DNA of 64,000 bases from Chrysoperla carnea (lineage: Eukaryota; Arthropoda; Insecta; Neuroptera; Chrysopidae), in assembly GCF_905475395.1 (NCBI RefSeq), contig NC_058339.1, positions 76,164,520-76,228,519 on the forward strand, written 5' to 3'. Below are positions 16,985 to 19,700 of this stretch, one piece after another. The notes under the pieces are model-generated. The model was not told the origin of the DNA. It searched no databases and saw only the letters and a list, made by a program, of their open reading frames with translations. The stretch's first letter is position 1, and each line of letters starts with the position of its first letter. The translations under genes were made by a program, and so were the position numbers.

Positions 16985-17915
16985 CAATATAGTTATGGAT
17001 TTTACTTAGCTCTAAGGCTAAATCTTGTCTCACTTTGGACTGAGACACATTATGGTCATGCACGGATATTAAGAAGGTACTCACTTCCAAGATCCGTTGA
17101 CTACGTTTTCCCTCTCCTAACTTCGGGAACATGTTCTCAATAAAGATCACTTCCAGACAGGAGTGGGATGAAAACCTGGTGAAGCCAAAGGGCGTCGTAT
17201 TTTATACCGACGGATCTAAGTGGGTAGAGTGGGTTGTGAGATCTTCTAAGAAAATCTCGATCTGCGTCTATCATATCGGCTGCCGGATCGTTGTAGCGTG
17301 TATCAAGCGGAAGTGATGGCTATTCATGAGGTATACACGAGAACGTACAGGACGACCGTGCATCCTTAAATGAGCTGGCGGATCAAATGAATGTAAACCT
17401 GGCATGGGTACCGGGACACAGGGACATTCCAGGAAATTGGGAAACCGACGAGCTCGCTAGAAATGGAACAATGCTGCCAGACACAAGCATATATAAATAT
17501 CCGGGAGTTCCATTTGCGAACTGCAAGTTGCTCTTCAAAGAGGATATCTTAAAAAAGGCCAATCTTAGATGGAAGAAGGAACGTACTTGTGATAATACAA
17601 AACACATATGGAGTATAATCGTCGGCGTTCCGAAGATCTTATATCACTTTCAAGGGCCTCTGTTAGCAAAGTTGTGGCGGCTATTACAGGACACTTGTTG
17701 GGCGGCAGGCATTCTGAATCCCTGGTTCTGGCAGTGTATCACTACTGCAGAAACTGACTACTGCAGGAGCTGTCACAGAGGTGAGGAGGAGGAGACAATG
17801 TCTCATCTTGTCATTGTCCAGCTCTTGCCATGAGTAGATAGACTTAATGAGCCAGCCTCTTTTTGACGGCTTCTCCGACCTAAAATCCGTCGACGTCAAA
17901 GGTATCACTCTTTTT
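16985..17915 (+). pseudogene. 3' end of a non-LTR retrotransposon (RNase H and C-terminal zinc-knuckle region), frameshifted
   Basis: This is the tail of a Jockey/I-type LINE polyprotein. HYGHARILRRYS (about 17047) and then QEWDENLVKPKGVVFYTDGSK (from about 17156) give the first catalytic Asp of the RNase H fold in YTDGSK. After a frameshift, VYQAEVMAIHE (about 17296-17330) supplies the Glu. In a third frame, NLAWVPGHRDIPGNWETDELAR supplies the later Asp. The 148-codon frame 17387-17833 ends near DYCRSCHRGEEEETMSHL, the cysteine/histidine motif usual at the C-terminus of these proteins, and decayed coding continues to about 17915. The reverse transcriptase and endonuclease are absent (5' truncation). 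It is not functional. Confidence 0.85.
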
Positions 17916-18412: not shown

Positions 18413-18825
18413 TCAAATGATATTGTTTGCTTGTATATACTTCTAATATGATTAATTGTTATGTTTATAATAAATAATAGTTTAAAAACACTAAAAAACA
18501 CGCTGATTGTAACTAGCTGAACTACAAAGCGTGGGGTGTTAAATTTCAATTATTGTAAATGTTTTATAGGCAGATATTGGTAAAAGTAAAGTCATTATAA
18601 AATTTTTTTTGTATTTTTTTTAAACTATTATTTATTTGGTGTTTTTTAGTTTTTTAGACTAACACTGATAAGTCCCCGGTCTGACAGATAAATGGCGTCG
18701 CTAGTATTAAATGCATATTATTTTTATATAGTACCAACCTTCAAATGATTCGTGTCAAAATTTGACGTCTGTAAGTCAATTAGTTTGTGAGATAGAGCGT
18801 CTTTTGTGAAGCAACTTTTGTTATT

Positions 18826-18894
18826 GTGAAAAAAATGGAAAAAATGGAATTTCGTGTTTTGATAAAATACTGTTTTCTGAAGGGAAAAAATACA
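18826..18894 (+). pseudogene. mirrored mariner transposase N-terminus
   Basis: The inverted arm repeats the first 23 codons (MKKMEKMEFRVLIKYCFLKG, then KNT). One substitution turns Lys-7 into Met relative to the minus-strand copy. After codon 23 the frame leaves mariner homology because it enters the loop in antisense. Confidence 0.88.
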
Positions 18895-19004
18895 GAGTCC
18901 GGAAACTCATTATCAAGCCAAGTTTTTGCTTCCACTGTATTTTTTCCCTTCAGAAAACAGTATTTTATCAAAACACGAAATTCCTTTTTTTCCATTTTTT
19001 TCAC
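18895..19004 (-). pseudogene. N-terminal fragment of irritans-like mariner transposase
   Basis: From the ATG at 19004 the minus strand reads MKKMEKKEFRVLIKYCFLKG, then KNTVEAKTWLDNEFPD, about 36 residues. This matches the first helix-turn-helix (paired-like DNA-binding) segment of irritans-group mariner transposases, which are about 340 residues long. The catalytic D,D34D domain is missing. The last 13 codons lie in the palindrome loop and the frame then runs into the inverted arm. A mirrored start exists on the plus strand at 18826. Confidence 0.88.
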
Positions 19005-19161
19005 AATAACAAAAGTTGCTTCACAAAAGACGCTCTATCTCACAAACTAATTGACTTACAGACGTCAAATTTTGACACGAATCATTTGAAGGTTGGTACT
19101 ATATAAAAATAATATGCATTTAATACTAGCGACGCCATTTATGTGTCAGACCGGGGACTTA

Positions 19162-19700
19162 TCAGCCAACCTATTATTATTTATTTATAAAAAATTCAGT
19201 ATAAATGTGGTGGGAGCGCAAATAAATGAATATTTGTTCAGATATGGAAATCGTTAATCCTGAAAATCATGATCAGGATAATCAAATAAACTTATGAAAT
19301 TATTGTATTACCATCGATCCTTGGTAAGTATGCCAATATTAGAGTTAATCTATCATTTTGAAGGGGGTCAAAATCATGTTCAAATTTTGGTTACATACTA
19401 GCATACTAACATACTAACATACGTATGAAGCTAATAAAAGCGTGTAAAAAAATACAATAGAATTCACAACAAATTTAGGTTGAATTTTAATCTCTTTGGC
19501 TTCAAATCATAGAAGTTCTTAGCTTTCGAGTTATTGTACCTAGAATTAAAAAACACACTTGTGATAGTAACACTAAAATTTCCCGAAGTTTCAGAAAATT
19601 TGACTGGGGGTTACCTTTACATAAGACATGCGCTCAGTACTTTATAATCATTTGGAAATTTCTCAGTACCTTTATATTCGAGGTAGCCATAAAACCCTAA
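19162..19700. other. spacer with a small CATACTAA tandem
   Basis: CATACTAGCATACTAACATACTAACATAC (19394-19422) is a short 9-10-bp tandem. Otherwise nothing was recognised. Confidence 0.45.

What the first reader, a model, noticed from the sequence alone, without database searches (positions are those of the whole stretch)
18671..19159. Nearly perfect 224-bp mariner palindrome bounded by TA
Two inverted mariner 5' ends, each with terminus, leader and first 23 transposase codons, differ at only two positions and face each other across 41 nt. The minus frame continues through the loop, so the direction of the duplication can be read. Such a locus, if transcribed, gives a long hairpin RNA matching active mariners. 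That is a plausible source of endo-siRNAs that silence the parent. It could also be a new non-autonomous mobile form, because both termini survive. The young arms imply a recent origin.
Basis: partly seen in the sequence, partly recalled or inferred. Interest (0 to 1): 0.75.

Follow-up and report, generated by a model that had tools for sequence, protein, structure and literature searches.

The report
Young palindromic mariner MITE in lacewing
A green lacewing genome carries about 500 copies of a tiny mirror-image jumping gene built from two copies of the front end of a Himar1-type mariner, and the copies record how such mirror-image DNA keeps its two halves alike and suggest that the transposase often cuts only one of its two ends.

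Summary
The palindrome is real but is not a lone locus. It is one copy of a very young non-autonomous mariner (MITE) whose junction occurs 517 times in the Chrysoperla carnea assembly (493 exactly). The parent, a Himar1-type mariner, has about 20 copies, some with an intact 348-aa ORF, and is similarly young. The element is the parent's 5' end folded back on itself at a 3-nt microhomology. One end carries the parent's 5' tip (ATAGG), the other its 3'-type tip (ACAGG). Full element here: 18662-19174; the right end is intact, the left is TA-ACA followed by a 6-bp deletion. Of 99 sampled copies, 46 have an altered end; where the tip base is readable, 27 of 72 C-ends and 5 of 99 T-ends are altered. 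Breakpoints fit a mariner 3-nt staggered cut at one end healed by end joining. Nine of 10 near-full-length parents have altered 3' ends. The arms evolve together, as expected from template switching in inverted repeats. The mobile-form reading is supported; small-RNA silencing is untested. Palindromic mariner MITEs are known (Made1); long arms, hybrid tips, one-end scars and visible arm homogenisation make this a notable variant.

The parts
18660..18661 (.). left TA (target-site duplication)
   Evidence: sequence; intact copies have TA at both ends
18662..18664 (.). ACA, the outer 3 nt of the 3'-type tip; the next 6 nt (GGTTGG) are missing between 18664 and 18665: one-end scar
   Evidence: comparison with intact copies (L001 'TAACA+del6')
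18665..18895 (+). arm 1 ('M-arm'): inverted duplicate of the mariner 5' end, with a truncated transposase start (ATG at 18835; 20 codons, MEKM...)
18896..18934 (-). 39-nt spacer; the minus-strand mariner frame continues through it (VEAKTWLDNEFPDS)
18893..18895 (-). CTG microhomology at the fold-back junction
   Evidence: parent continues CTCTG|CCCCAGG; the MITE continues CTG|TATTTTTTCCC
18935..19165 (-). arm 2 ('K-arm'): genuine mariner 5' end, 5' UTR and first 20 transposase codons (ORF start 18995, MEKK...)
   Evidence: family K-arm (L002) differs from the parent majority at one base in 250
19166..19174 (-). intact 5'-type tip ATAGGTTGG
19175..19176 (.). right TA (target-site duplication)

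Best explanation
A palindromic MITE of an active or very recently active Himar1-type mariner in Chrysoperla carnea. Origin (inferred): during repair or replication of one full-length element, synthesis from the 5' end switched strands at a CTG microhomology about 34 codons into the transposase gene, copied the 5' end backwards, and rejoined the element within the 24 nt shared by its 5' and 3' terminal repeats, so the second end kept the 3'-type tip (ACA). The parent's transposase then spread it to about 500 sites (copies shown; trans-mobilisation inferred). Because the arms are nearly identical, template switching keeps correcting one arm from the other and sometimes flips the middle (pattern shown; mechanism inferred). 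The transposase tends to cut the C-tip end alone; end joining then leaves TA-ACA plus a small deletion and probably locks the copy in place (scars shown; one-end cutting and locking inferred).
For: Copies: 493 exact and 517 with up to 3 mismatches, control 0 in both. A 5'-UTR probe (up to 1 mismatch) has 1057 hits, close to 2 x 517 plus about 20 parents. Parent: 20 places, up to 2 mismatches; 348-aa ORF in 7 of the 11 loci L010-L020; 95.5% nt identity over 1044 nt to a stretch of a bacterial plasmid record; Mos1 structure match E 1.1e-52. Arm versus parent: 1 difference in 250 nt. Both ends TA plus intact tip (one inner substitution allowed) in 46 of 99 sampled copies; empty site with one TA for L030. 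Youth: mean 0.505 substitutions per copy outside the three polymorphic pairs, 0.106%; parents 0-3 differences from their majority in 1267 bp over 7 equal-length copies. Scars: C-ends 45 intact / 27 altered, T-ends 94 / 5 (Fisher 1.4e-7); 19 of 34 scarred ends keep all 3 outer nt, 6 keep 2, 9 keep 1; parents' 3' ends altered in 9 of 12 read (9 of the 10 near-full-length copies), 5' ends in 0 of 14. Arms: pair 20/468 AA 48, TT 8, GG 87, unmatched 6 of 149; pair 147/341 changed on both arms in 7 of 149; pair 174/314 in all four combinations, n 142; 2 double changes at partner positions among the other substitutions, expected 0.013, P 1e-4.
Against: No transposition was observed. Scarred copies carry no more substitutions than intact ones (0.41 v 0.46, P 0.51), so the lesions may be tied to insertion rather than to later cutting. 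Ends that lost the diagnostic base cannot be called C or T and were left out of the C/T counts. Four scarred T-ends exist, and three of them sit opposite a C-end that has lost its TA. Ectopic gene conversion between copies could also produce matched arms. The 99 copies are all on contig C1 and were chosen by an exact loop, so degraded copies are under-represented.
Confidence: 0.88

Rival explanations
1. The tip lesions arise at insertion: the 3-nt gap at the non-transferred strand of one end is filled or ligated wrongly, and nothing is cut afterwards.
For: Scarred copies are not older than intact ones; 15 of 34 scars lose part of the outer 3 nt, as partial gap filling could do.
Against: 19 of 34 scars keep all 3 outer nt and delete 1-10 nt further in, and two truncated copies keep TAACA beside deletions of about 100 nt or more (L136, L114). 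Loss on both strands needs a double-strand break.
Confidence: 0.3
2. The palindrome works as a hairpin-RNA locus giving siRNAs that silence the parent mariner.
For: 231-bp stem, -392 kcal/mol; Made1, a mariner MITE palindrome, feeds a human miRNA family (PMC1784062, abstract and passages).
Against: No small-RNA or transcript data were available. The family reached 517 copies beside about 20 parents of similar youth, so silencing has not prevented mobility.
Confidence: 0.2
3. Paired changes in the two arms come from repeated independent founding of the palindrome from different parent copies.
For: Parents exist in about 20 copies, and the G state at pair 20/468 matches the parent majority.
Against: Copies of all three base states share one junction and loop. 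Seven equal-length parents differ from their majority by only 0-3 nt. Unmatched states exist (6 of 149 at pair 20; 112 of 142 at pair 174).
Confidence: 0.05
4. Assembly artefact (false palindrome).
For: Perfect inverted repeats are a known failure mode of some libraries (recalled).
Against: 517 copies of the junction, varied flanks, TA at both ends of intact copies, HiFi long reads.
Confidence: 0.01

Closest known systems
Made1 (MITE of Hsmar1, human)
   Same: Mariner MITE that is a near-perfect palindrome and would fold as a hairpin RNA (PMC1784062, abstract and passages).
   Different: Made1 is 80 bp with 37-bp arms. This one is about 519 bp when intact, with 231-nt core arms holding the 5' UTR and coding start; it is very young, and a parent with intact ORFs is in the same genome.
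Himar1 / Cpmar1 (irritans-subfamily mariners; Cpmar1 from Chrysoperla plorabunda)
   Same: The parent here is a Himar1-type mariner by ORF length, Mos1 homology and 95.5% nt identity to a plasmid-borne stretch. Cpmar1 U11641 (Chrysoperla plorabunda) and Himar1 U11646 appear in one list of mariners in PMC4777549 (passage). The name Himar1 itself rests on recall.
   Different: The MITE has two 5' ends and no complete transposase.
Mos1 and Mboumar-9 end preference
   [quoted passage not shown]).
   Different: That is test-tube work; here the evidence is genomic scars, in an element whose two ends differ mainly by one tip base.
Template switching in inverted repeats (quasipalindrome correction)
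   Same: Homogenises arms and inverts spacers (PMC8604942, abstract and passages): both patterns are seen here.
   Different: Reported there for short repeats in yeast genes; here in a transposon family of about 500 copies.
Rhodnius prolixus mariner MITEs
   Same: Non-autonomous mariner derivatives.

Membership tests
MITE of a mariner | short, non-coding, terminal inverted repeats | tested here: met
   about 519 bp when intact, 231-nt core arms plus tips, transposase frame cut after 34 codons
MITE of a mariner | TA target-site duplication | tested here: met
   46 of 99 sampled copies have TA plus intact tip at both ends; empty site with a single TA for L030
MITE of a mariner | high copy number of uniform elements | tested here: met
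   517 copies of the junction, 493 exact; 149 of 163 loci read are full-length
MITE of a mariner | shares ends with an autonomous partner | tested here: met
   one base in 250 differs from the parent 5' end; 348-aa ORF in 7 of 11 parent loci
MITE of a mariner | moved by the partner's transposase | not testable with these tools
   needs an excision or transposition assay
Himar1-type mariner (parent) | mariner transposase of about 348 aa, related to Mos1 | tested here: met
   phmmer to 3hos E 1.1e-52; PF01359
Himar1-type mariner (parent) | near identity to Himar1 itself | tested here: inconclusive
   95.5% nt identity to a plasmid stretch of which only the first 378 nt are annotated as a CDS, 'hypothetical protein'; no record named Himar1 was compared
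hairpin-RNA endo-siRNA locus | long inverted repeat | tested here: met
hairpin-RNA endo-siRNA locus | transcription and 21-22-nt reads | not testable with these tools
   no RNA data

The most novel reading that the evidence does not exclude
One tip base (C versus T at position 2) decides which end a Himar1-type transposase cuts alone in the living animal. Healing of these one-end breaks freezes about half of the MITE copies and most full-length parents within the same burst: a built-in brake on the invasion, readable in the genome.
Probability: 0.3. Interest if true: 0.68.

Novelty: new variant of a known kind. Interest (0 to 1): 0.52.

Why it matters
Himar1 is a workhorse of genetics (recalled), yet what its transposase does at each end in a natural host is largely unknown to me beyond test-tube work on related mariners. 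About 500 young copies, plus parents of similar age, make a replicated natural experiment on three questions: how palindromic MITEs are born, how inverted repeats homogenise, and how often a mariner is cut at one end only.

Tried and rejected
Single silencing locus: rejected as the main reading, since the junction occurs 517 times. Assembly artefact: rejected. Other large families made from the parent's 5' end: not implied by the counts (1057 5'-UTR hits v 2 x 517 plus about 20), though truncated copies blur this sum. Fold-back copying into flanking DNA at L162 (T/T tips; 81 matches in 83 flank positions): not secure, because the copy lies in an older inverted repeat family. A strict rule of unlike tips: weakened, since 3 of 99 sampled copies are T/T; no C/C was seen, but ends with lost tips cannot be judged. 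'Scars follow the tip, not the arm': few cases. In the 99, two swapped copies with a retained C are scarred at it (L065, L152) and one is intact (L081); L174 was called swapped by inference only, so the Fisher value of 0.003 is partly circular. Lesions increasing with age: not seen. Plasmid record H1 served only to identify the parent. No paper describing this element appeared in the listings; most listings were capped (for example 25 of 49, 12 of 74), I saw titles and abstract beginnings, and only open-licence papers are held.

Full report
What is there. The window lies in an assembly that I identify as Chrysoperla carnea inChrCarn1.1: contig C1 has 139,979,878 bases, exactly the longest scaffold in the genome note, which also reports 337 scaffolds and HiFi reads (PMC10116181, first of two parts of the text read). 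Not everything agrees: C3 is 94,120,854 bases here against 94.41 Mb there, and the total is 559,487,470 against 560,248,701; I did not resolve this. The palindrome has arms 18665-18895 and 18935-19165 and two arm mismatches. The whole element is 18662-19174.

Copy number. A 41-nt pattern across the fold-back junction has 493 exact copies (267 + 226) and none for the reversed control; a shifted 41-nt junction pattern with up to 3 mismatches has 517. A 5'-UTR probe with up to 1 mismatch has 1057 hits, which two per palindrome plus about 20 parents nearly accounts for. A DNA search scored 40 of 570 candidates; all 40 match over the full 489 nt at 100% after rounding. The seven of them that were read (L002-L008) agree with each other over these 489 nt once turned the same way, and the window copy differs from them only at 18687.

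Parent. A PF01359 search (150 of 532 candidates scored) led to near-identical mariners. Of the 12 loci it returned, L009 is another mariner; of the 11 loci L010-L020, 7 hold a 348-aa ORF. The parent sequence across the fold-back point occurs at 20 places and the 3' end at 18. The transposase matches Mos1 structures. Its gene is 95.5% identical over 1044 nt to a stretch of a bacterial plasmid record, annotated there only in part, as a hypothetical protein; from recall I take this to be a laboratory Himar1 vector. The K-arm differs from the parent majority at one base in 250. Seven equal-length parents differ from their majority by 0-3 bases in 1267. The 99 sampled MITEs carry on average 0.505 substitutions outside the three polymorphic pairs, 0.106%. 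Parent and MITE copies are thus of similar youth; with an insect mutation rate recalled as about 3e-9 per generation this is a few hundred thousand generations, a rough figure.

How it was made (inference). The minus-strand frame runs through the spacer to codon 34 and then turns back at CTG, present on both sides of the junction. The parent's tips differ: 5' TA-ATAGGTTGG, 3' TA-ACAGGTTGG where intact. In most palindromes the genuine 5' arm keeps ATA and the duplicated arm carries ACA. The simplest account is a fold-back inside one full-length element, rejoined within the shared 24 nt of the two terminal repeats.

Mobility. Of 99 copies (99 of the first 100 places listed on C1, chosen only by an exact loop), 46 have TA plus an intact tip at both ends (one inner substitution allowed), 46 have an altered end and 7 are truncated. 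Joined flanks of copy L030 match unoccupied repeats; in L185 and L186 the match crosses the site without a gap and with a single TA, while L184 and L187 have 2-nt length differences there.

One-end scars. Where the diagnostic base is retained, C-ends are 45 intact, 21 scarred and 6 without TA; T-ends are 94, 4 and 1 (Fisher on altered v intact 1.4e-7; scars alone 21:4, binomial P 0.0009). By arm, in 92 copies not counted as swapped or T/T, the K-side is altered in 7 and the M-side in 48. Among 34 scarred ends, 19 keep all three outer bases and lose 1-10 inner ones, 6 keep two, 9 keep one. Mariner transposases are known (recall) to cut one strand 3 nt inside the element, so these are the expected products of a break at one end healed by end joining. 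Parent loci show the same: 9 of 12 3' ends read are altered, among them 9 of the 10 near-full-length copies, and 0 of 14 5' ends. The window copy is a case (TA-ACA, 6 bp lost). Against a slow post-insertion process, scarred copies carry no more substitutions than intact ones (0.41 v 0.46, P 0.51). Three of the four T-end scars lie opposite a C-end without TA, which a simple one-end model does not explain. End preference itself is established for Mos1 and Mboumar-9 in vitro (PMC4505599, abstract, passages, sections 23 and 27).

Arms evolving together. In 149 full-length copies of 163 loci analysed (99 sampled without regard to tips, 8 best hits, 56 picked by an intact G-TA-ATA tip), the pair 20/468 is A-A in 48, T-T in 8, G-G in 87 and unmatched in 6; 147/341 is changed on both arms in 7; 174/314 is A/T in 111, T/T in 21, A/A in 9 and T/A in 1. 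The states of 174/314 recur on different backgrounds, so several changes are needed unless copies recombine. Among 62 other substitutions, two double changes fall on partner positions, against 0.013 expected (P 1e-4); most of the rest affect one arm only. Tips are explicitly swapped between arms in 3 of the 99 (L065, L081, L152) and in 10 of the 163. Arm homogenisation and spacer inversion are known signatures of template switching in inverted repeats (PMC8604942, abstract and passages); ectopic conversion between copies remains possible.

The hairpin question. The RNA would fold with -392 kcal/mol. Made1 shows that a mariner palindrome can feed small-RNA pathways (PMC1784062, abstract and passages). 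No expression data are available here, so silencing is neither shown nor excluded.

Judgement. Ordinary in kind (a palindromic MITE), unusual in quality: very young, one junction, long arms, a parent with intact ORFs, and two mutational processes readable across many copies (163 of about 517 were read). The one-base end bias is the boldest reading that survives, and it can be tested with an in vitro cleavage assay.

Noticed in passing
L010-L020, L177-L180 (parent mariner copies): Nine of 10 near-full-length parents have an altered 3' end (9 of 12 3' ends read in all) while all 14 5' ends read are intact, so most transposase genes read may sit in elements that can no longer leave.
   Followed up: partly
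L162 / L181 (C1:37285700-37293700): A copy with two T tips sits in the middle of an older foldback repeat with units of about 160 bp; the inner 83 nt of flank match at 81 positions across the palindrome, better than the outer part.
   Followed up: partly
L027 and L030: Two copies inserted 2 bp apart in different members of the same dispersed repeat family.
   Followed up: partly
L038, L060, L061, L079, L118, L140; L133: A shared 9-bp deletion at core position 310 marks a sublineage; L133 has a 9-bp deletion at about the mirror position in the other arm.
   Followed up: no
window 17387-17833 (+): 148-aa ORF that reads like the RNase H end of a non-LTR retrotransposon (name by eye, not tested).
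   Followed up: no
window 18469-18498 / 18607-18636: A 30-nt, 90% inverted repeat in the left flank of the element.
   Followed up: no
NZ_CP135988.1 3551-4592: A plasmid record from Proteus mirabilis carries a stretch 95.5% identical to the lacewing mariner transposase gene, on a record with predicted resistance genes; it looks like a laboratory delivery vector (the last is a guess).
   Followed up: no
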